64,000 bases of DNA from contig NZ_AP025466.1 of the NCBI RefSeq assembly GCF_024347355.1, positions 372,001-436,000 of the forward strand. Reading direction: 5' to 3'. A program made the position numbers and the translations under genes. This stretch comes from Vibrio chagasii (GTDB lineage Bacteria > Pseudomonadota > Gammaproteobacteria > Enterobacterales > Vibrionaceae). Numbering within the stretch: position 1 is the first letter of the stretch; the number at the start of each line of letters is the position of its first letter. Below, in pieces: positions 23,288 through 47,721 of this stretch. Below the pieces are notes generated by a model that saw nothing but the letters and a program-made list of their open reading frames with translations, did not search any database and was not told the origin of the DNA.

Positions 23288-23328
23288 ATCTCCCCTTACA
23301 CATAGACATAATGACCCCCACGAAAGGT

Positions 23329-23406
23329 GCTAGCCTCCAATATCGTGGGTTAGCTGAAAGCCAGAGCCATAATTAGTGCGTTAAACAACTAAATTTGGAG
23401 GCTAGC
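23329..23406 (+). promoter_or_regulatory. Inverted repeat that can mask the transposase ribosome site
   Basis: gctagcctccaa (23329-23340) is the perfect reverse complement of ttggaggctagc (23395-23406), which contains the ggagg ribosome site and abuts the ATG at 23407. Transcripts entering from outside the element would fold and hide the site. The same pair precedes each of the other copies (ending at 26642, 31290, 43565 and 46126). Confidence 0.75.
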
Positions 23407-24561
23407 ATGAGTAAAGATAGCATAATTTTCATTGGCTTAGATACGCATAAGTCATTTATTCAAGTCGCTGTTTTACAAGAACATCGAGGGGCAAACCCAC
23501 AACAGTTAGGCCGTATTAAATCCAATAAGGCCGCGCTAATTAAATTGGCCAAGCAACTGCAATCCAAGTATCCAAAAGCCACTCTGCACTTTGTCTATGA
23601 AGCAGGACCATGTGGTTACTGGACTTATCGCCTGATTACGAGCCTTGGACACTGCTGCTATGTCGTCGCTCCATCACTTATACCTAAGAAGCCAGGCGAT
23701 AGAGTTAAAACTGACAAACGAGACGCAGCAAAGCTCGCCAAGCTGTTAAAAGCCGAAGAGCTTACACCCATCTATGTACCAGAAGCCGAAGATGAAGCTA
23801 TTCGAGATCTCTCGCGTGCCAGAGAAACGGCAATGAAAGATCTCAAAGACGCAAAGTTCCAACTCAAAGGCTTTCTTCTTCGCAATAATATCCAAGCGAC
23901 GGTGAATGATAACTGGTCTAAAAAGCATCTACGGTGGCTGACCGATCTCATTCTTCCTCACCATAGTCAACAAATCGTCTTGCAAGAGATGATCATTACT
24001 ATCAATGAGCGGATACAGCGGCTGCAACGACTCGATAATGAACTGCTCCATCAGGTCAAAAACTGGCGATACTATCCTGTTGTGAAAGCCATTCAAGCTA
24101 TGCGGGGTGTAAGGTTACTCGTAGCTCTTGGCACAATAGCTGAGCTGGGTGACTTACGGCGGTTCGACCATCCAAGAAAGCTTATGGCTTACCTTGGGCT
24201 TGTTCCAACAGAAAACTCCAGTGGAGGGAAAACTCGTCGTGGCAGCTTAACAAAGTGTGGCAACAGTCGAGCCAGACGGTTACTCGTTGAAGGCGCACAC
24301 ACCTATAAGCATAAAGCGAACATATCTGTAGAGCTGCAACTAAGGCAAGAAGGGCTGCCTAAAGAGATAGTTGATATCGCTTGGCAAGCCCAGCAAAGGT
24401 TATGTCGTCGTTACCAACGACTACTACAAAAAGGTAAACACCGAAATGTCGTTGTGGTCGCCATCGCAAGAGAGATGATCGCTTACATCTGGGCCATTGC
24501 GCGTGAAGTTGTCATCAGCGATGTGGATCCTAGAACTCGAATCGCTCGTTTACCGGCATGA
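23407..24561 (+). CDS. IS1111-type transposase (DEDD, IS110 family), copy 1
   Basis: 384 residues from MSKDSIIFIGLDTHKSF; the TTG-initiated 12-bp extension is rejected because ggagg lies inside it. N-terminal RuvC-like domain with Asp11 (GLDTHK), a Glu in VYEAGPCGYW and two Asp in KTDKRDAAKLAK, a coiled-coil middle, and the C-terminal Transposase_20 domain with the serine motif region SSGGKTRRGSLTKCGNSRARR. It is expected to act with an element-encoded guide RNA. Identical at protein level to copies 4 and 5. Confidence 0.95.
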   Translation: MSKDSIIFIGLDTHKSFIQVAVLQEHRGANPQQLGRIKSNKAALIKLAKQLQSKYPKATLHFVYEAGPCGYWTYRLITSLGHCCYVVAPSLIPKKPGDRVKTDKRDAAKLAKLLKAEELTPIYVPEAEDEAIRDLSRARETAMKDLKDAKFQLKGFLLRNNIQATVNDNWSKKHLRWLTDLILPHHSQQIVLQEMIITINERIQRLQRLDNELLHQVKNWRYYPVVKAIQAMRGVRLLVALGTIAELGDLRRFDHPRKLMAYLGLVPTENSSGGKTRRGSLTKCGNSRARRLLVEGAHTYKHKANISVELQLRQEGLPKEIVDIAWQAQQRLCRRYQRLLQKGKHRNVVVVAIAREMIAYIWAIAREVVISDVDPRTRIARLPA

Positions 24562-24570
24562 AGACAGAAT

Positions 24571-24789
24571 TAGTGTTATCGCATTGGATAAAGCATCGGG
24601 AGTGGCACAAACACCGACGGCGTTAGGACGGCAATATAGCTTCGGCTGTATTGAACCACGAGCATAGACTGAAGACAGGTGCTACGACGGAACAAGTAAG
24701 GTAGGCTCTACTCATCAAACGATGAGCAATCCACGTATATCAGCATGAGAACCGACGACATTACTTGCTTCATCTATGCGGTAACACTA
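24571..24789 (+). ncRNA. Putative bridge/seekRNA of IS1111 copy 1
   Basis: The non-coding tail is closed by a 14-bp long-range helix: tagtgttatcgcat (24571-24584) with atgcggtaacacta (24776-24789), one G-U pair. Inside are a 9-bp stem capped by UUCG (24632-24653) and a ctcatc/gatgag hairpin (24711-24726). IS1111 elements carry their guide RNA downstream of the transposase gene. Segments ggcgtta (24619-24625) and tatgc (24775-24779) complement the target flanks aacgcc and gcata. Confidence 0.65.
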
Positions 24790-24863
24790 TCCCAAAATGA
24801 ACAAAGGCTCTGAAATGAGGGAGCAGAAACTTCTACGTTTTTAATTGACAGTGGGGGTCATAT

Positions 24864-24986
24864 CAACGCCTTGCTAAGGTGAGAGCAACGCAATACCTTA
24901 GCCTCCGCATAATACCTTAAACACATAAACCGACGCATAGTAAAAATGCCACGCGTTGCGAATCACTCTTAAGCAACTTGTTATAC
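24864..24986 (-). repeat. attC site
   Basis: Starts aacgccttgctaagg directly at the IS end and finishes cactcttaagcaacttgttatac; the inner part has the usual aaaaatgccacgcgttgcgaatc core. The IS1111 copy replaced its left junction. Confidence 0.88.
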
Positions 24987-25040: not shown

Positions 25041-25289
25041 ATGACCACTAGAATTTTAGCCGATGTCGCTGCAAGCATTACTGAGTTGAAAGCTAACCCT
25101 ATGAAAGTTGCAACTAGTGCTTACGGCGAACCTGTTGCTGTATTAAACCGAAATGAACCGGCATTTTATTGCGTACCTGCCGAAGCGTACGAAATGATGA
25201 TGGACAGACTCGAAGATCTTGAACTACTCGCTATCGCTAAAGAGCGTGAATCTGAAGAGAGCATTTCGGTAAATATTGATGACCTATAA
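25041..25289 (+). CDS. Antitoxin, Phd/YefM family
   Basis: 82 residues from MTTRILADVAASITELKANPMKV: the N-terminal DNA-binding part and KANPMKVATSAYGEPVAVLNRNEPAFYCVPAEAYEMMMDRLED are typical of Phd/YefM antitoxins paired with RelE/ParE toxins; the C-terminal acidic tail would wrap the toxin. Its last 11 bp overlap the toxin start. The pair is on the plus strand, against the array direction, and therefore must have its own promoter, as is usual for toxin-antitoxin cassettes that stabilise integrons. Confidence 0.93.
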   Translation: MTTRILADVAASITELKANPMKVATSAYGEPVAVLNRNEPAFYCVPAEAYEMMMDRLEDLELLAIAKERESEESISVNIDDL

Positions 25290-25569
25290 ACTCGACTTTA
25301 AAAAGAGCGCCCTCAAAGAGTGGAAAAAGCTTGGTTCTACTCTGCAACAACAATTTAAGAAAAAGCTAATAGAGCGCTTAGATAACCCACATGTTCCGGC
25401 TTCAAAACTATCTGGAGCTGACAACATGTATAAAATTAAGTTGCGTCAATCGGGCTACCGTCTCGTCTACAAAGTTGAAGACGATGTCATCATTGTAACC
25501 GTCCTAGCAGTTGGAAAGCGCGAACGTAGCGATATTTACCGTAAAGCCATGAAAAGGTTAGATGATTGA
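25279..25569 (+). CDS. Toxin, RelE/ParE superfamily
   Basis: 96 residues from MTYKLDFKKSALKEWKKL (ATG at 25279; a TTG one codon upstream is less likely). KSALKEWKKLGSTLQQQFKKKLIERLDNP and the closing YRLVYKVEDDVIIVTVLAVGKRERSDIYRKA follow RelE mRNA-interferase proteins of the RelBE/YefM-YoeB type, with basic residues Lys/Arg in the ribosomal A-site-binding positions. Expected to cut mRNA on the ribosome unless bound by the upstream antitoxin. Confidence 0.93.
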   Translation: MTYKLDFKKSALKEWKKLGSTLQQQFKKKLIERLDNPHVPASKLSGADNMYKIKLRQSGYRLVYKVEDDVIIVTVLAVGKRERSDIYRKAMKRLDD

Positions 25570-26539: not shown

Positions 26540-27536
26540 AGACATAATGACCCCCACGAAAGGTGCTAGCCTCCAATATCGTGGGTTAGCTGAAAGCCAG
26601 AGCCATAATTAGTGCGTTAAACAACTAAATTTGGAGGCTAGCATGAGTAAAGATAGCATAATTTTCATTGGCTTAGATACGCATAAGTCATTTATTCAAG
26701 TCGCTGTTTTACAAGAACATCGAGGGGCAAACCCACAACACCTTGGCCGTATTAAATCTAACAAGTCCGCGCTTATTAAATTGGCCAGACAACTGCAATC
26801 CAAGTATCCAAAAGCCACTCTGCACTTTGTCTATGAAGCAGGACCATGTGGTTACTGGACTTATCGCCTGATTACGAGCCTTGGACACTGCTGCTATGTC
26901 GTCGCTCCATCACTTATACCTAAGAAGCCAGGCGATAGAGTTAAAACTGACAAACGAGACGCAGCAAAGCTCGCCAAGCTGTTAAAAGCCGAAGAGCTTA
27001 CACCCATCGATGTACCAGAAGCCGAAGATGAAGCTATTCGAGATCTCTCGCGTGCCAGAGAAACGGCAATGAAAGCTCTCAAAGACGCAAAGTTCCAACT
27101 CAAAGGCTTTCTTCTTCGCAATAATATCCAAGCGACGGTGAATGATAACTGGTCTAAAAAGCATCTACGATGGCTAACCGACCTTATTCTTCCTCATCAT
27201 TGTCAGCAAATCGTCTTACAAGAGATGATCATCACGATCAATGAGCGGATACAGCGGCTTCAACGACTCGATAACGAACTGCTCCATCAAGTCAAAAGCT
27301 GGCGATATTATCCTGTAGTAAAAGCCATTCAAGCTATGCGTGTAGTGAGGTTACTCGTAGCACTCGGCACAATCGCTGAACTGGGTGACTTACGGCGGTT
27401 CGACCATCCAAGAAAACTTATGGCTTACCTTGGACTTGTCCCAACAGAAAACTCCAGTGGAGGTAAAACTCGTCGTGGCAGCTTAACAAAGTGTGGCAAC
27501 AGTCGAGCCAGACGGTTACTCGTTGAAGGCGCACAT
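26540..27536 (+). mobile_element. IS1111-type element, copy 2 (truncated)
   Basis: The left end with atgacccccac (26547-26557) and gcata flank is intact, but the element stops within the transposase gene; the last ~86 codons, guide-RNA tail and right end are missing. The break joins a 24-bp scrap of another IS110 element. It is the most diverged copy. Confidence 0.9.
26643..27536 (+). pseudogene. IS1111-type transposase, truncated copy 2
   Basis: 298 residues remain of 384; reading ends at ...RRLLVEGAH, losing the end of the Transposase_20 domain. Substitutions against the intact copies include Tyr to Asp in PIDVPEAED, Ser to Cys in PHHCQQ, and Gly to Val in MRVVRLL, in line with decay. The 5' third shares diagnostic bases with copy 3. 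Confidence 0.92.
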
Positions 27537-27559: not shown

Positions 27560-28841
27560 TATATGGACTCCCCCGTTCAACAAAAAGAACGATAGATATT
27601 CGTGTGCTTATATACGAGCTACTATTGAGGAGCTACCTCTGCTCAATGATAATTTCGGCTGTTAGGGTACAATGCTTGTTAGCGAGCTTTTCCTCTTTCG
27701 ACTATTCTGTATCACCTAACTTTTATCTTACGCTTCATTTTGTCAAACTGTCAGAGCATAGATGCTCTATACTCCGTATCAGATTTAAGCATAGCAAAAG
27801 CGGTACGAACTGTTTTATTTGCCAGCGCTACCGCTGCACATTTTTTACCTCTACGTACTACTAATGCTTGTAGCCACTGTTCTTTCTTTGTTTTAGCATC
27901 GCGTTTTACGACTTGCTGAACCACAGACATTGCGCCAGTAATTAATAGGCTGCGCAACGTTGAGTTTTTCCGTTTATCAATATGTCCCAACTTCGCTTTA
28001 CCACCAGAAGAATGTTGGAGTGGTGTTAAGCCAATACAAGCGGAAACATCTTTTCCCTTTTTAAACTGACCAAGTTCTCCTGATGCCAAAGCAATGTACA
28101 AATGAACTGCGTTTAACTTACCGATACCTTCAATCTTCATTAACTTTTGGCATTCTTGGATTGACCTTATCCATTGATCAAGGGAATGATCATAAGTATC
28201 AATGGCTTCGCACAAAACCAAATATAAGTCGAGTGACACTTTCAGCATATGCCTAAAATCAGCTGTTAGCTCATTGTCCGCGTCTTCCAAAATCAGCTCT
28301 ATCGATTGAGTAAAGCCTTGATGGTTCCTCGAGACTGGAAGATTAAACTCCCTCATCAATCCTATTAATTGATTTTTTAATGCCGTCCGTTGTTTAACAG
28401 CTTGCTCTCGTAATTTCAGCATTGATTGCGCTTGCTGTTGGCTATTCGTCTTACCAGAAACGAAAGTTACTTCAGGTAACTGTGAGGCTTGAATGATCGC
28501 TAAAGCGTCATTCTTATCTGTTTTTTGATTCTGACGAACCGCTTTAACCAAACGAGAGGAAATTAACTTCGAAGTGTGGCCTAAAGATGTGGCAATTTGA
28601 TTCCAATAATTAGAGCTTGCGCAAGCTTCAAACACCACCAGAGAGGGTGACAGATTACTGAGATAAGCGCTGAACTGTTTCGGTGTCATTTCTCGATTAG
28701 ATTGCACCTTTTTATCTGCGTAAACGCAAACTTGAATAACCTTAGCGGCTAGATCAACGCCAATAATGAGATTTTTCATAATCAGACTCCCGTGTTGCTT
28801 CCTATTAAAAGATAGGCGGATTGGGGATGGGGAGTCCAATC
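27560..28841 (-). mobile_element. Second IS1111-type element (distinct lineage)
   Basis: About 1.28 kb with subterminal inverted repeats tggactcccc (27564-27573) and ggggagtcca (28829-28838). The right flank continues as tcttgttatgtg, the end of an attC; the left flank is the IS110 scrap. The non-coding stretch 27564-27750, downstream of the transposase, would hold its guide RNA; it contains tgcttgttagcgagc, which resembles an attC end. Confidence 0.82.
27751..28779 (-). CDS. IS110/IS1111-family transposase
   Basis: 342 residues from MKNLIIGVDLAAKVIQVCVY; ATG at 28779 preceded by gggag. DEDD residues: Asp9 in GVDLAAK, Glu in VFEACASSNYW, Asp in KTDKNDALA. The C-terminal Transposase_20 part has GLTPLQHSSGGKAKLGHIDKRKNSTLR. 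Only distantly like the transposase of the multi-copy element. Appears intact. Confidence 0.92.
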   Translation of the reverse strand: MKNLIIGVDLAAKVIQVCVYADKKVQSNREMTPKQFSAYLSNLSPSLVVFEACASSNYWNQIATSLGHTSKLISSRLVKAVRQNQKTDKNDALAIIQASQLPEVTFVSGKTNSQQQAQSMLKLREQAVKQRTALKNQLIGLMREFNLPVSRNHQGFTQSIELILEDADNELTADFRHMLKVSLDLYLVLCEAIDTYDHSLDQWIRSIQECQKLMKIEGIGKLNAVHLYIALASGELGQFKKGKDVSACIGLTPLQHSSGGKAKLGHIDKRKNSTLRSLLITGAMSVVQQVVKRDAKTKKEQWLQALVVRRGKKCAAVALANKTVRTAFAMLKSDTEYRASML

Positions 28842-31187: not shown

Positions 31188-31290
31188 AGACATAATGACC
31201 CCCACGAAAGGTGCTAGCCTCCAATATAGTGGGTTAGCTTTAAGCCAGAGCCATAATTAGTGCGTCAAACAACTAAATTTGGAGGCTAGC

Positions 31291-32445
31291 ATGAGTAAAG
31301 ATAGCATAATTTTCATTGGCTTAGATACGCATAAGTCATTTATTCAAGTCGCTGTTTTACAAGAACATCGAGGGGCAAACCCACAACACCTTGGCCGTAT
31401 TAAATCTAACAAGTCCGCGCTTATTAAATTGGCCAGACAACTGCAATCCAAGTATCCAAAAGCCACTCTGCACTTTGTCTATGAAGCAGGACCATGTGGT
31501 TACTGGACTTATCGCCTGATTACGAGCCTTGGACACTGCTGCTATGTCGTCGCTCCATCACTTATACCTAAGAAGCCAGGCGATAGAGTTAAAACTGACA
31601 AACGAGACGCAGCAAAGCTCGCCAAGCTGTTAAAAGCCGAAGAGCTTACACCCATCTATGTACCAGAAGCCGAAGATGAAGCTATTCGAGATCTCTCGCG
31701 TGCCAGAGAAACGGCAATGAAAGATCTCAAAGACGCAAAGTTCCAACTCAAAGGCTTTCTTCTTCGCAATAATATCCAAGCGACGGTGAATGATAACTGG
31801 TCTAAAAAGCATCTACGGTGGCTGACCGATCTCATTCTTCCTCACCATAGTCAACAAATCGTCTTGCAAGAGATGATCATTACTATCAATGAGCGGATAC
31901 AGCGGCTGCAACGACTCGATAATGAACTGCTCCATCAGGTCAAAAACTGGCGATACTATCCTGTTGTGAAAGCCATTCAAGCTATGCGGGGTGTAAGGTT
32001 ACTCGTAGCTCTTGGCACAATAGCTGAGCTGGGTGACTTACGGCGGTTCGACCATCCAAGAAAGCTTATGGCTTACCTTGGGCTTGTTCCAACCGAAAGC
32101 TCCAGTGGAGGTAAAACTCGTCGTGGCAGCTTAACAAAGTGTGGCAACAGTCGAGCCAGACGGTTACTCGTTGAAGGCGCACACACCTATAAGCATAAAG
32201 CGAACATATCTGTAGAGCTGCAACTAAGGCAAGAAGGGCTGCCTAAAGAGATAGTTGATATCGCTTGGCAAGCCCAGCAAAGGTTATGTCGTCGTTACCA
32301 ACGACTACTACAAAAAGGTAAACACCGAAATGTCGTTGTGGTCGCCATCGCAAGAGAGATGATCGCTTACATCTGGGCCATTGCGCGTGAAGTTGTCATC
32401 AGCGATGTGGATCCTAGAACTCGAATCGCTCGTTTACCGGCATGA
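31291..32445 (+). CDS. IS1111-type transposase, copy 3
   Basis: 384 residues with all DEDD and Transposase_20 motifs intact. Residues about 32-50 (QHLGRIKSNKSALIKLARQ) are those of truncated copy 2, whereas the rest matches copies 1, 4 and 5 apart from PTESSSGG. This looks like gene conversion between copies. Confidence 0.95.
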   Translation: MSKDSIIFIGLDTHKSFIQVAVLQEHRGANPQHLGRIKSNKSALIKLARQLQSKYPKATLHFVYEAGPCGYWTYRLITSLGHCCYVVAPSLIPKKPGDRVKTDKRDAAKLAKLLKAEELTPIYVPEAEDEAIRDLSRARETAMKDLKDAKFQLKGFLLRNNIQATVNDNWSKKHLRWLTDLILPHHSQQIVLQEMIITINERIQRLQRLDNELLHQVKNWRYYPVVKAIQAMRGVRLLVALGTIAELGDLRRFDHPRKLMAYLGLVPTESSSGGKTRRGSLTKCGNSRARRLLVEGAHTYKHKANISVELQLRQEGLPKEIVDIAWQAQQRLCRRYQRLLQKGKHRNVVVVAIAREMIAYIWAIAREVVISDVDPRTRIARLPA

Positions 32446-32454
32446 AGACAGAAT

Positions 32455-32673
32455 TAGTGTTATCGCATTGGATAAAGCATCGGGAGTGGCACAAACACCG
32501 ACGGCGTTAGGACGGCAATATAGCTTCGGCTGTATTGAACCACGAGCATAGACTGAAGACAGGTGCTACGACGGAACAAGTAAGGTAGGCTCTACTCATC
32601 AAACGATGAGCAATCCACGTATATCAGCATGAGAACCGACGACATTACTTGCTTCATCTATGCGGTAACACTA
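32455..32673 (+). ncRNA. Putative bridge/seekRNA of IS1111 copy 3
   Basis: Same sequence and same closing 14-bp helix as in copy 1, offset +10 to +228 from the transposase stop. Confidence 0.65.
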
Positions 32674-32747
32674 TCCCAAAATGAACAAAGGCTCTGAAAT
32701 GAGGGAGCAGAAACTTCTACGTTTTTAATTGACAGTGGGGGTCATAT

Positions 32748-32870
32748 CAACGCCCTGTTAAGCTGAGGAACGCAATACCAAAGCCACCGCATACCACCTT
32801 AAACACAAAACGCAACGCATAGTAAAAATGCCACGCGTGCCGAATCACTCTTGAACAATTTGTTATGTGC
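32748..32870 (-). repeat. attC site
   Basis: caacgccctgttaagctgagg ... gaacaatttgttatgtgc with the atgccacgcgtgccgaatc core; GTTA overlaps the VOC stop codon. Confidence 0.9.
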
Positions 32871-43462: not shown

Positions 43463-43565
43463 AGACATAATGACCCCCACGAAAGGTGCTAGCCTCCAAT
43501 ATCGTGGGTTAGCTGAAAGCCAGAGCCATAATTAGTGCGTTAAACAACTAAATTTGGAGGCTAGC

Positions 43566-44720
43566 ATGAGTAAAGATAGCATAATTTTCATTGGCTTAGA
43601 TACGCATAAGTCATTTATTCAAGTCGCTGTTTTACAAGAACATCGAGGGGCAAACCCACAACAGTTAGGCCGTATTAAATCCAATAAGGCCGCGCTAATT
43701 AAATTGGCCAAGCAACTGCAATCCAAGTATCCAAAAGCCACTCTGCACTTTGTCTATGAAGCAGGACCATGTGGTTACTGGACTTATCGCCTGATTACGA
43801 GCCTTGGACACTGCTGCTATGTCGTCGCTCCATCACTTATACCTAAGAAGCCAGGCGATAGAGTTAAAACTGACAAACGAGACGCAGCAAAGCTCGCCAA
43901 GCTGTTAAAAGCCGAAGAGCTTACACCCATCTATGTACCAGAAGCCGAAGATGAAGCTATTCGAGATCTCTCGCGTGCCAGAGAAACGGCAATGAAAGAT
44001 CTCAAAGACGCAAAGTTCCAACTCAAAGGCTTTCTTCTTCGCAATAATATCCAAGCGACGGTGAATGATAACTGGTCTAAAAAGCATCTACGGTGGCTGA
44101 CCGATCTCATTCTTCCTCACCATAGTCAACAAATCGTCTTGCAAGAGATGATCATTACTATCAATGAGCGGATACAGCGGCTGCAACGACTCGATAATGA
44201 ACTGCTCCATCAGGTCAAAAACTGGCGATACTATCCTGTTGTGAAAGCCATTCAAGCTATGCGGGGTGTAAGGTTACTCGTAGCTCTTGGCACAATAGCT
44301 GAGCTGGGTGACTTACGGCGGTTCGACCATCCAAGAAAGCTTATGGCTTACCTTGGGCTTGTTCCAACAGAAAACTCCAGTGGAGGGAAAACTCGTCGTG
44401 GCAGCTTAACAAAGTGTGGCAACAGTCGAGCCAGACGGTTACTCGTTGAAGGCGCACACACCTATAAGCATAAAGCGAACATATCTGTAGAGCTGCAACT
44501 AAGGCAAGAAGGGCTGCCTAAAGAGATAGTTGATATCGCTTGGCAAGCCCAGCAAAGGTTATGTCGTCGTTACCAACGACTACTACAAAAAGGTAAACAC
44601 CGAAATGTCGTTGTGGTCGCCATCGCAAGAGAGATGATCGCTTACATCTGGGCCATTGCGCGTGAAGTTGTCATCAGCGATGTGGATCCTAGAACTCGAA
44701 TCGCTCGTTTACCGGCATGA
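43566..44720 (+). CDS. IS1111-type transposase, copy 4
   Basis: 384 residues, identical to copy 1 and copy 5 at protein level, with ggagg and the masking inverted repeat in front. Identity of copies implies recent transposition or conversion. Confidence 0.95.
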   Translation: MSKDSIIFIGLDTHKSFIQVAVLQEHRGANPQQLGRIKSNKAALIKLAKQLQSKYPKATLHFVYEAGPCGYWTYRLITSLGHCCYVVAPSLIPKKPGDRVKTDKRDAAKLAKLLKAEELTPIYVPEAEDEAIRDLSRARETAMKDLKDAKFQLKGFLLRNNIQATVNDNWSKKHLRWLTDLILPHHSQQIVLQEMIITINERIQRLQRLDNELLHQVKNWRYYPVVKAIQAMRGVRLLVALGTIAELGDLRRFDHPRKLMAYLGLVPTENSSGGKTRRGSLTKCGNSRARRLLVEGAHTYKHKANISVELQLRQEGLPKEIVDIAWQAQQRLCRRYQRLLQKGKHRNVVVVAIAREMIAYIWAIAREVVISDVDPRTRIARLPA

Positions 44721-44729
44721 AGACAGAAT

Positions 44730-44948
44730 TAGTGTTATCGCATTGGATAAAGCATCGGGAGTGGCACAAACACCGACGGCGTTAGGACGGCAATATAGCT
44801 TCGGCTGTATTGAACCACGAGCATAGACTGAAGACAGGTGCTACGACGGAACAAGTAAGGTAGGCTCTACTCATCAAACGATGAGCAATCCACGTATATC
44901 AGCATGAGAACCGACGACATTACTTGCTTCATCTATGCGGTAACACTA
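44730..44948 (+). ncRNA. Putative bridge/seekRNA of IS1111 copy 4
   Basis: Same sequence and closing helix as copy 1. Confidence 0.65.
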
Positions 44949-45022
44949 TCCCAAAATGAACAAAGGCTCTGAAATGAGGGAGCAGAAACTTCTACGTTTT
45001 TAATTGACAGTGGGGGTCATAT

Positions 45023-45148
45023 CAACGCCGCGTTAAGTAGTGAGCAACGCTGACCACCAAACCTAAACCATTGTGCCGTAAACACTAAATTCAAAGAAAA
45101 CTGAAAATGCCGAGCGTTGCGAATCTGTCTTAAACGCTTTGTTATGCA
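45023..45148 (-). repeat. attC site
   Basis: caacgccgcgttaagtagtg ... taaacgctttgttatgcaac, core aaaatgccgagcgttgcgaatc; GTTA overlaps the next stop codon. Confidence 0.9.
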
Positions 45149-45999: not shown

Positions 46000-46126
46000 T
46001 CCGAACCTCAAACTCTATGTTGCATAGACATAATGACCCCCACGAGGTGCTAGCCTCCAATATCGTGGGTTAGCTGAAAGCCAGAGCCATAATTAGTGCG
46101 TTAAACAACTAAATTTGGAGGCTAGC

Positions 46127-47281
46127 ATGAGTAAAGATAGCATAATTTTCATTGGCTTAGATACGCATAAGTCATTTATTCAAGTCGCTGTTTTACAAGA
46201 ACATCGAGGGGCAAACCCACAACAGTTAGGCCGTATTAAATCCAATAAGGCCGCGCTAATTAAATTGGCCAAGCAACTGCAATCCAAGTATCCAAAAGCC
46301 ACTCTGCACTTTGTCTATGAAGCAGGACCATGTGGTTACTGGACTTATCGCCTGATTACGAGCCTTGGACACTGCTGCTATGTCGTCGCTCCATCACTTA
46401 TACCTAAGAAGCCAGGCGATAGAGTTAAAACTGACAAACGAGACGCAGCAAAGCTCGCCAAGCTGTTAAAAGCCGAAGAGCTTACACCCATCTATGTACC
46501 AGAAGCCGAAGATGAAGCTATTCGAGATCTCTCGCGTGCCAGAGAAACGGCAATGAAAGATCTCAAAGACGCAAAGTTCCAACTCAAAGGCTTTCTTCTT
46601 CGCAATAATATCCAAGCGACGGTGAATGATAACTGGTCTAAAAAGCATCTACGGTGGCTGACCGATCTCATTCTTCCTCACCATAGTCAACAAATCGTCT
46701 TGCAAGAGATGATCATTACTATCAATGAGCGGATACAGCGGCTGCAACGACTCGATAATGAACTGCTCCATCAGGTCAAAAACTGGCGATACTATCCTGT
46801 TGTGAAAGCCATTCAAGCTATGCGGGGTGTAAGGTTACTCGTAGCTCTTGGCACAATAGCTGAGCTGGGTGACTTACGGCGGTTCGACCATCCAAGAAAG
46901 CTTATGGCTTACCTTGGGCTTGTTCCAACAGAAAACTCCAGTGGAGGGAAAACTCGTCGTGGCAGCTTAACAAAGTGTGGCAACAGTCGAGCCAGACGGT
47001 TACTCGTTGAAGGCGCACACACCTATAAGCATAAAGCGAACATATCTGTAGAGCTGCAACTAAGGCAAGAAGGGCTGCCTAAAGAGATAGTTGATATCGC
47101 TTGGCAAGCCCAGCAAAGGTTATGTCGTCGTTACCAACGACTACTACAAAAAGGTAAACACCGAAATGTCGTTGTGGTCGCCATCGCAAGAGAGATGATC
47201 GCTTACATCTGGGCCATTGCGCGTGAAGTTGTCATCAGCGATGTGGATCCTAGAACTCGAATCGCTCGTTTACCGGCATGA
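46127..47281 (+). CDS. IS1111-type transposase, copy 5
   Basis: 384 residues, identical to copies 1 and 4. All catalytic residues present; the masking inverted repeat upstream (46049-46126) is preserved despite the nearby 2-bp deletion. Confidence 0.95.
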   Translation: MSKDSIIFIGLDTHKSFIQVAVLQEHRGANPQQLGRIKSNKAALIKLAKQLQSKYPKATLHFVYEAGPCGYWTYRLITSLGHCCYVVAPSLIPKKPGDRVKTDKRDAAKLAKLLKAEELTPIYVPEAEDEAIRDLSRARETAMKDLKDAKFQLKGFLLRNNIQATVNDNWSKKHLRWLTDLILPHHSQQIVLQEMIITINERIQRLQRLDNELLHQVKNWRYYPVVKAIQAMRGVRLLVALGTIAELGDLRRFDHPRKLMAYLGLVPTENSSGGKTRRGSLTKCGNSRARRLLVEGAHTYKHKANISVELQLRQEGLPKEIVDIAWQAQQRLCRRYQRLLQKGKHRNVVVVAIAREMIAYIWAIAREVVISDVDPRTRIARLPA

Positions 47282-47290
47282 AGACAGAAT

Positions 47291-47509
47291 TAGTGTTATC
47301 GCATTGGATAAAGCATCGGGAGTGGCACAAACACCGACGGCGTTAGGACGGCAATATAGCTTCGGCTGTATTGAACCACGAGCATAGACTGAAGACAGGT
47401 GCTACGACGGAACAAGTAAAGTAGGCTCTACTCATCAAACGATGAGCAATCCACGTATATCAGCATGAGAACCGACGACATTACTTGCTTCATCTATGCG
47501 GTAACACTA
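47291..47509 (+). ncRNA. Putative bridge/seekRNA of IS1111 copy 5
   Basis: As in copy 1 with a single g-to-a change (acaagtaaagtagg) outside the closing helix and the UUCG hairpin. Confidence 0.65.
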
Positions 47510-47721
47510 TCCCAAAATGAACAAAGGCTCTGAAATGAGGGAGCAGAAACTTCTACGTTTTTAATTGACAGTGGGGGTCATATCAACGCCCAATTAAGGG
47601 GTGAGCAACGCCTCCACCCAAACCTAAAGCATTGTGCCATAAACACTAAATTTGAAGTAGAAGCAAAAATGCCGAGCGTTGTGAATGATCTTCACCCGAT
47701 AAAATGGACACCCTATTCTCT

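What the first reader, a model, noticed from the sequence alone, without database searches (positions are those of the whole stretch)
24571..24789. Structured guide-RNA candidate in the multi-copy attC-targeting IS1111 element
Each complete copy has a tail after the transposase gene closed by a 14-bp long-range helix (one G-U), enclosing a 9-bp UUCG-capped hairpin and a second hairpin. IS110/IS1111 elements use bridge/seekRNAs from such tails to choose targets. Here the target is the attC crossover, so this would be an RNA-guided element tuned to an integron. Segments ggcgtta and tatgc complement the aacgcc and gcata flanks of the insertion sites, giving concrete guide candidates.
Basis: partly seen in the sequence, partly recalled or inferred. 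Interest (0 to 1): 0.85.

Follow-up and report, generated by a model that had tools for sequence, protein, structure and literature searches.

The report
RNA-guided insertion sequence targeting integrons
This is a small bacterial jumping gene of a known family that seems to carry its own guide RNA for finding a short sequence at the ends of integron gene cassettes; the kind is already known, and the new part is comparative evidence that the same RNA also reads one end of the jumping gene itself.

Summary
The 303-nt tail after the transposase gene of this IS1111-family element folds as described. On 43 relatives 97.4% of pair cells are paired, and each of the seven helices has at least one pair changed on both sides. 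The element (23304-24864) has 11-bp subterminal inverted repeats with 7-bp and 3-bp extensions and sits at RCAT|AACGCC, the 5' end of attC.

The guide reading is supported with one correction. GGCGTTA (24619-24625) is the top-strand guide. At 66 unique sites the top-strand guide pairs 7 of 7 at 55, and 8 more have one G-U. Many distant relatives with other targets carry matching other guides. A third segment, TATATCAG (24736-24743), matches the element's own right end and covaries with it (20 of 22 anchored slots; held-out 15 of 20000 permutations).

This is a new member of a known kind: the IS1111-attC group with seekRNA/bridge-RNA guidance (PMC11187229, PMC11208160). The donor-end covariation is the most useful addition. 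No RNA or transposition was tested.

The parts
23304..24864 (+). Complete IS1111-family element, copy 1 (1561 bp with terminal extensions)
   Evidence: sTIR pair plus 7-bp/3-bp extensions conserved in relatives
23304..23310 (+). Left terminal extension AGACATA (7 bp); 23307-23312 (CATAAT) would be the -10 box once the ends are joined in a circle
23311..23321 (+). Left subterminal inverted repeat ATGACCCCCAC
23407..24561 (+). DEDD transposase gene (384 aa; IS110 family RNA-guided transposase)
   Evidence: PF01548, PF02371; NF033542 8.9e-84; GL-P----SG motif read in the translation
24562..24864 (+). Non-coding 3' region encoding the candidate guide RNA
24571..24594 (+). 5' strand of the long-range closing helix (pairs with 24767-24789)
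   Evidence: helices 1 and 2: 19 pairs, 12 with a change on both sides
24767..24789 (+).
24602..24685 (+). Inner domain closed by helix 24602-24608/24679-24685; holds both target guides (84 nt, within the 70-100 nt reported for seekRNAs)
   Evidence: helix 3, 98.7% paired, 3 of 7 pairs with both-side changes; size range from PMC11187229
24619..24625 (+). Top-strand (right-target) guide GGCGTTA, complementary to T|AACGCC
   Evidence: 55 of 66 unique sites 7/7 Watson-Crick, 8 more 6 + one G-U; 0 of 20000 permutations across 20 hand-chosen elements
24632..24653 (+). UUCG-capped hairpin between the two guides
   Evidence: helix 4: 6 of 8 pairs with changes on both sides
24662..24669 (+). Bottom-strand (left-target) guide GCAT, followed by AGAC which equals the start of the left end
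   Evidence: anchored test on 17 of 20 elements, 0 of 20000 permutations; loose in the close clade
24711..24726 (+). Second hairpin
   Evidence: helix 7: 5 of 6 pairs with changes on both sides
24736..24743 (+). Candidate donor guide TATATCAG, 7 of 8 letters as in the circle junction CATATC|AG (right end plus first two bases of the left end)
24845..24850 (+). TTGACA, -35 box of the promoter formed when right and left ends are joined (17-bp spacer to CATAAT)
24851..24861 (+). Right subterminal inverted repeat GTGGGGGTCAT
24862..24864 (+). Right terminal extension ATC
24865..24870 (+). Right flank AACGCC of the attC target
31188..32748 (+). Complete copy 2, same guide at 32503
43463..45023 (+). 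Complete copy 3, same guide at 44778
46026..47584 (+). Complete copy 4, same guide at 47339
26540..27535 (+). Truncated copy lacking the guide-RNA region and right end

Best explanation
An IS1111-family insertion sequence of the attC-targeting group. When it excises, its joined ends form a promoter-like sequence (TTGACA-N17-CATAAT) that would transcribe the transposase gene and the 3' region. That region folds into a closed, multi-helix RNA. Inside it, GGCGTTA pairs with the top strand of the target (T|AACGCC) and GCAT pairs with its bottom strand, the two guides flanking a hairpin. A third segment, TATATCAG, pairs with the right end of the element in the circle junction. The DEDD transposase bound to this RNA would then insert the circle, in one orientation and without target duplication, at RCAT|AACGCC, the inverse core site at the 5' end of attC. 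Shown here: anatomy, structure covariation, guide-flank matching, right-end matching. Inferred: transcription, processing, RNP formation, transposition.
For: Structure. Family. Ends. Target constancy: T|AAC at 65 of 65 unique sites, then G 62, C 61, C 59 of 65; an attC partner motif downstream at 44 of 65 against 3.5 expected. Top-strand guide pairs 7/7 at 55 of 66 sites, 8 more with one G-U. Natural reprogramming: in 20 hand-chosen elements (14 at other targets, 6 at attC-type sites) cognate guide-target scores exceed non-cognate ones (7.23 v 6.04 of 8; 0 of 20000 permutations); held-out set of 9: 178 of 20000. Left guide, anchored: 3.59 v 2.19 of 5, 0 of 20000, 17 of 20 elements. Right-end guide: held-out 15 of 20000; 20 of 22 anchored slots equal the 3-bp extension, permutation maximum 13. 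Same order and overlap of the two target matches as in the IS1111 seekRNAs of PMC11187229, two of which belong to attC-targeting elements (sections 9, 10, 14).
Against: No RNA data. The left guide is loose: of 66 sites only 12 match all four flank letters, 30 match three, 18 two, 6 one, and its -2 letter does not track the flank significantly (Fisher p 0.20). The held-out left-guide test is weak (1097 of 20000). Some top-strand guides fail: L074 (its guide is interrupted by an insert) and L112 at 5 of 7, L042 at 6 of 7 without wobble; L123, L124 and L125 reach only 6 of 8, no better than 11 to 18 other targets, and the window's own element scores 7 with 5 of 19 other targets as good; in the held-out set 4 of 9 (L193, L195, L202, L204) beat all 15 decoys. 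Two of 25 further close-clade copies do not have T|AAC (L169, L172). Permutations do not correct for relatedness. PMC11187229 found an 82-nt RNA sufficient for ISEc11, so the donor segment, which lies outside an RNA of that size here, may not be essential.
Confidence: 0.92

Rival explanations
1. The tail is a structured 3' UTR or attenuator of the transposase gene; the target matches are chance or relics of past insertion.
For: A stable conserved structure directly after a stop codon would also fit.
Against: Guide segments change together with the target in elements with other targets, and internal segments at homologous positions match flank and right end. A UTR role predicts neither.
Confidence: 0.03
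2. Protein or DNA-structure targeting: the transposase itself recognises the folded or linear attC site, and the RNA has another role.
For: In the 69-100% identity clade the target core T|AAC is the same at 65 of 65 sites, so a conserved protein with a conserved target gives little contrast there.
Against: Transposases of about 44-48% identity still use attC-type sites and carry the same guide GGGCGTTA (L121, L145, L147, L150, L151), while others of about 40-50% identity use other targets with, in many cases, matching other guides. Nine SWAT-3 sites without an attC partner motif still carry T|AACG. Of the 11 sites without a perfect 7-nt match, 8 keep pairing through one G-U.
Confidence: 0.03
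3. One reading: tatgc (24775-24779) is the second guide.
For: It is complementary to gcata of the left flank.
Against: It lies in the 3' strand of the long-range helix, whose pairs vary by compensatory change, so its conservation is explained by pairing. It is on the wrong strand for an IS1111 bottom-strand match (PMC11187229). The anchored GCAT position tracks flanks across elements.
Confidence: 0.02

Closest known systems
ISKpn4 and ISPst6 (IS1111 family, attC-targeting; seekRNA co-purified with transposase, PMC11187229)
   Same: Family features (downstream non-coding region, sTIR, short terminal extensions), one end of attC as target, two target matches in the order top then bottom strand.
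   Different: Here a lineage found mostly in marine gammaproteobacteria; no experimental RNA. Identity to ISKpn4/ISPst6 was not measured (their sequences were not fetched).
IS1111-attC group (Tetu and Holmes 2008; Post and Hall 2009; seen only as cited in other papers)
   Same: Site-specific insertion at attC of integron cassettes.
   Different: Here near-identical elements also sit at sites lacking an attC partner motif (SWAT-3), which suggests recognition of a short linear sequence.
IS110/IS621 bridge RNA (PMC11208160 section 12 and passages; PMC11208158 start of abstract and a reference-list passage only)
   Same: DEDD-type transposase; one RNA with guides for target and donor.
   Different: RNA is downstream of the gene, target matches are in reverse order, long subterminal inverted repeats, and no right-donor guide could be shown.
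Predicted IS1111 bridge RNAs (three of the six elements of Extended Data Fig. 10c of PMC11208160, ISPa11 among them; legend seen, figure not)
   Same: Predicted donor-binding nucleotides in IS1111 RNAs; the legend says LTG, RTG, LDG and RDG are shown for the six elements.
   Different: Here the left-donor guide is supported by covariation with seven right extensions and a right-donor guide is not; which letters they assigned could not be compared.

Membership tests
IS1111 family | DEDD transposase of the IS110/IS1111 type with GL-P----S(t)G motif | tested here: met
   PF01548, PF02371 above cut-offs; NF033542 281.5 bits, cut-off 140; GLVPTENSSG read in the translation
IS1111 family | Subterminal inverted repeats of 11-13 bp with about 7-bp left and 3-bp right extensions | tested here: met
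   11-bp perfect sTIR; AGACATA and ATC extensions, conserved in relatives
IS1111 family | Longer non-coding region downstream of tnp | tested here: met
   303 nt downstream against 96 nt from the left sTIR to the start codon
IS1111-attC group | Insertion at one end of attC sites of gene cassettes | tested here: met
   T|AAC at 65 of 65 unique sites; attC partner motif downstream at 44 of 65 v 3.5 expected. 21 of 65 sites lack that motif, among them 9 of 11 from SWAT-3; 2 of 25 further copies lack T|AAC
seekRNA | Two short segments matching top and bottom strand of the target, top first, overlapping in the target | tested here: met
   GGCGTTA at 24619, GCAT(A) at 24662; tracking tests, the left one being loose
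seekRNA | 70-100 nt RNA co-purifying with and required by the transposase | not testable with these tools
   No RNA data; the closed inner domain is 84 nt (24602-24685)
IS110-type bridge RNA (IS621) | RNA in the left end, bottom-strand match before top-strand match | tested here: not met
   RNA is in the right end and the order is the reverse (family orders from PMC11187229)
IS110-type bridge RNA (IS621) | Donor guide for the left half of the donor junction | tested here: met
   20 of 22 anchored slots equal the right extension; held-out 15 of 20000 permutations
IS110-type bridge RNA (IS621) | Donor guide for the right half of the donor junction | tested here: inconclusive
   No signal over the whole NCR (13632, 12397, 7786 of 20000); weak in a restricted window (927, 754, 8287 of 20000)

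The most novel reading that the evidence does not exclude
In IS1111 elements the long downstream RNA is bispecific: besides the two target guides it carries a conserved left-donor guide that pairs with the element's own right end (CAT plus the 3-bp extension plus AG), so that the RNA and the element's end co-evolve. This would give the long seekRNA, whose role is stated as unestablished in print, a function as donor reader, possibly with no matching right-donor guide, that is, a three-guide rather than four-guide bridge RNA.
Probability: 0.5. Interest if true: 0.6.

Novelty: new member of a known kind. Interest (0 to 1): 0.42.

Why it matters
It adds a multi-copy natural example of an RNA-guided element living in integron cassette arrays, with about 65 distinct insertion sites from which guide rules can be read: strict right side, loose left side, G-U tolerance. 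The donor-end covariation bears on an open point: PMC11187229 reports that a short RNA suffices for ISEc11 and leaves the role of the long RNA open, whereas PMC11208160 predicts donor-binding nucleotides in IS1111. The pattern found here says which eight nucleotides to test.

Tried and rejected
Right-donor guide: searched in three ways over the whole NCR (13632, 12397 and 7786 of 20000 permutations as good) and in a restricted window (927, 754, 8287 of 20000). Not claimed.

tatgc as guide: rejected because it is a covarying helix strand.

Tracking of the left guide's -2 letter inside the close clade: not significant (Fisher p 0.20).

An inverted-arm test for attC was poorly designed: the regex missed some cores (such as GTTATRC), and only 27 of 65 sites reached p<=0.05. 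Replaced by the downstream TTGTTA test: 44 of 65. Of the window's four sites, the one at 46130 lacks it.

Rfam gave no match in the window at gathering thresholds; no tRNA; the transposase has no PADLOC match.

Rows dropped. rest on the 105 copies, made from loci L001-L120; copies fetched later are only and the hand-chosen tests. Two copies had no right end found (L022, L117), L102's right end was misread and dropped, and copies on contig ends with too little flank were not counted; among these L108 (guide GGGTGTTA) sits at AACTTCC and L098 (guide GGGCGTTA) at AACACC, which do not match fully. The structure alignment used 43 of 53 regions left after removing near-duplicates; 10 were left out by hand. 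One search used 20 representatives chosen by hand, skipping elements whose ends were not reliable (such as L183, L184, L174, L148, L149, L157) and near-duplicates. One search anchored 17 of 20 (L186, L132, L124 without anchor). One search used 9 of 12 fetched elements (L198, L199, L201 dropped for an sTIR under 8); L194 was kept and fails all three tests, probably because its ends are wrong. In its donor test L197 and L200 score 7 of 8 but 4 of 11 and 5 of 15 decoys do as well. One search anchored 22 of 30; L185 and L124 do not match; of the 8 without anchor, six score 7 or 8 of 8 for the donor segment, L186 scores 6, L031 was not scored. The donor pattern was noticed on the discovery set and then tested on elements fetched afterwards.

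Not done: structure prediction, covariance-model search, viral scans, direct comparison with ISKpn4/ISPst6 sequences.

Full report
What is there. The window holds four complete copies and one truncated copy of a 1.56-kb element. Its transposase is a 384-aa DEDD protein of the IS110/IS1111 type: PF01548 and PF02371, NF033542 'IS110 family RNA-guided transposase' at 8.9e-84, and weak matches to the solved ISCro4 and IS621 transposases (3.1e-05 and 4.2e-04). The element has an 11-bp perfect subterminal inverted repeat (ATGACCCCCAC...GTGGGGGTCAT), a 7-bp left extension AGACATA and a 3-bp right extension ATC, and a 303-nt non-coding region after the gene. These are the features that PMC11187229 gives for the IS1111 family (introduction passage; section 6 read). 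Joining right and left ends gives TTGACA-N17-CATAAT, in line with the promoter at joined IS ends mentioned in that paper (section 14 read).

Insertion site. All four complete copies read ...ACAT or GCAT| element |AACGCC.... The partner motif TTGTTA expected at the far end of attC is found 45-170 nt downstream at 44 of 65 sites against 3.5 expected from shuffles. Among 25 further close-clade copies examined (some of them the same sites), two depart: L169 (AGACGCC) and L172 (AGCGCA). So the target is the 5' end of attC: by recalled integron nomenclature the inverse core site R'', not the recombination crossover in R'. The elements of Vibrionales bacterium SWAT-3, 98-99% identical in transposase, are an exception: 9 of their 11 sites lack the motif but still carry T|AACG. 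Twelve of the other 54 sites lack the motif as well, the window's fourth copy among them, so its absence alone proves nothing; but the concentration in SWAT-3 fits recognition of a short linear sequence rather than of a folded attC.

Structure. On an alignment of 43 distinct 3' regions, taken from 53 that remained after removing near-duplicates (10 left out by hand), RNAalifold predicts 57 pairs, 29 with a both-side change. For the 47-pair structure that I then fixed, 97.4% of 2011 cells pair, 28 pairs show changes on both sides, and no shuffle of 500 reaches any of the five measures. The structure came from the same alignment, so the slide control leans in its favour; the both-side changes are the stronger evidence. 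The long-range helix (19 pairs in two runs, 12 with both-side changes), the UUCG hairpin (6 of 8) and the second hairpin (5 of 6) are well supported; two short helices rest on one such pair each.

Target guides. GGCGTTA (24619-24625) is complementary to T|AACGCC. At 66 unique sites in the 69-100% clade the guide of that copy pairs 7 of 7 at 55, 6 plus one G-U at 8, and worse at 3 (L042, L074, L112). Where the guide has changed, the flank has in some cases changed with it: L099 carries GGGTGTTA and sits at AACACCC; L113 carries GGAAGTTA and sits at AACTTCC; but L112 carries GGGTGTTA and sits at AACTTCC. The second guide is GCAT at 24662-24665, after the hairpin. It is the same as the top strand of the left flank, so it would pair with the bottom strand. 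The order top-strand match first, bottom-strand match second, with overlap at the insertion point, is the one reported for IS1111 seekRNAs (PMC11187229 section 9).

Test on other targets. Among relatives of about 40-50% transposase identity some still use attC-type sites and others use different sites. For 20 elements chosen by hand, the best match of each whole 3' region to its own right target scores 7.23 of 8 against 6.04 for others' targets (0 of 20000 permutations). Eight elements reach 8 of 8, for example L185, L190, L191 and L186 with four different targets; L123, L124 and L125 reach only 6, no better than most other targets. The left guide, read at an anchored position and scored on five flank letters only, gives 3.59 against 2.19 (0 of 20000; 17 of 20 elements). 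On nine elements fetched later the right-target test gives 178 of 20000, four of the nine beating all decoys, and the left-guide test, scored over the whole region with three left-end letters included, is weak at 1097 of 20000. The left guide is clearly the looser one: in the close clade only 12 of 66 sites match all four letters. None of these permutations corrects for relatedness of the elements.

A third match. At 24736-24743 the RNA reads TATATCAG. The circle junction of this element reads CATATC|AG, so seven of eight letters are the same. In relatives with other right extensions this slot changes in step: ATC, ACC, AAG, GAG, AGG and CGG each match exactly at the anchored slot (20 of 22 elements; permutation mean 4.7, maximum 13), and ATG in L200 in the held-out set. 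The pattern was noticed on the discovery elements (tested: 7.23 v 6.52, 0 of 20000) and then tested on nine others fetched afterwards (15 of 20000), including one of 33% identity from an actinobacterium. Inside the close clade, with 58 distinct regions, the slot letter and the middle letter of the extension give T/T 19, T/C 15, C/C 23, C/T 1. The one nearly absent class is the one that could not pair with the bottom strand even by wobble (Fisher p 4e-5, not corrected for relatedness). I read this as a left-donor guide. A right-donor guide could not be shown. PMC11208160 (section 12 and passages read; figure not seen) already predicts donor-binding nucleotides in IS1111 RNAs, and the legend of Extended Data Fig. 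10 says that left and right donor guides are shown for six elements, three of them IS1111. So the idea of an IS1111 donor guide is not new, and the three-guide form of my bold reading goes against that prediction; for this reason I lowered its odds from 0.55 to 0.5 on checking. What is added is covariation across seven extension types. PMC11187229 (sections 10 and 14 read) shows that an 82-nt RNA suffices for ISEc11 and says the role of the longer RNA is unknown. I looked for a print statement of this covariation; by their titles only PMC11187229, PMC11208160, PMC11208158 and PMC12045711 among the listed papers deal with such guide RNAs, the last was not opened, and bioRxiv and most subscription journals are not in the library.

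Verdict. The finding is real and its interpretation mostly right, with the second guide corrected. It is a new member of a known kind: the IS1111-attC group, of which ISKpn4 and ISPst6 have been shown to make transposase-bound seekRNAs (PMC11187229, section 9). Whether this exact element has an ISfinder name could not be checked. The window's own assembly is not held; the nearest genome shares 29% of sampled words, and its match coordinates equal those of Vibrio chagasii LC2-408 contigs, so a Vibrio host is inferred. Transcription, processing and transposition remain untested.

Noticed in passing
27751-28839 (-): A second, different IS110-family transposase (PF01548, PF02371) lies just beyond the truncated copy of the IS1111 element and may have to do with the truncation.
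   Followed up: partly
25042-25569 (+): A two-gene cassette beside copy 1 reads like a YefM/Phd-type antitoxin followed by a RelE/ParE-type toxin (judged from the sequence and recall, no search).
   Followed up: no
L038-L047 (Vibrionales bacterium SWAT-3): Elements 98-99% identical in transposase, in many copies on many contigs; 9 of 11 sites lack the attC partner motif though T|AACG is kept, so the element may have spread outside integrons.
   Followed up: partly
L118 (Klebsiella pneumoniae plasmid pKP5362-1): A relative with a 72% identical transposase sits beside the arr-3 cassette of a clinical resistance plasmid; its left guide differs from the marine ones and matches the last four letters of its own left flank.
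   Followed up: partly
24666-24669 and relatives: The letters after the left guide (AGAC) are the same as the first letters of the element's left end in many relatives, so the RNA would pair better with the integrated left junction than with the empty target; exceptions such as L188, L123 and L033 exist.
   Followed up: partly
L086:3650-4025, L089:3644-3959: Extra sequence next to the donor slot in two otherwise similar RNAs (alignment A1), which suggests that region tolerates length changes.
   Followed up: no
window 23407-24561: Weak NCBIfam match of the transposase C-terminal part to a TIGR-Tas RNA-guided endonuclease model (4.8e-05, 23.4 bits, below the cut-off of 100).
   Followed up: no
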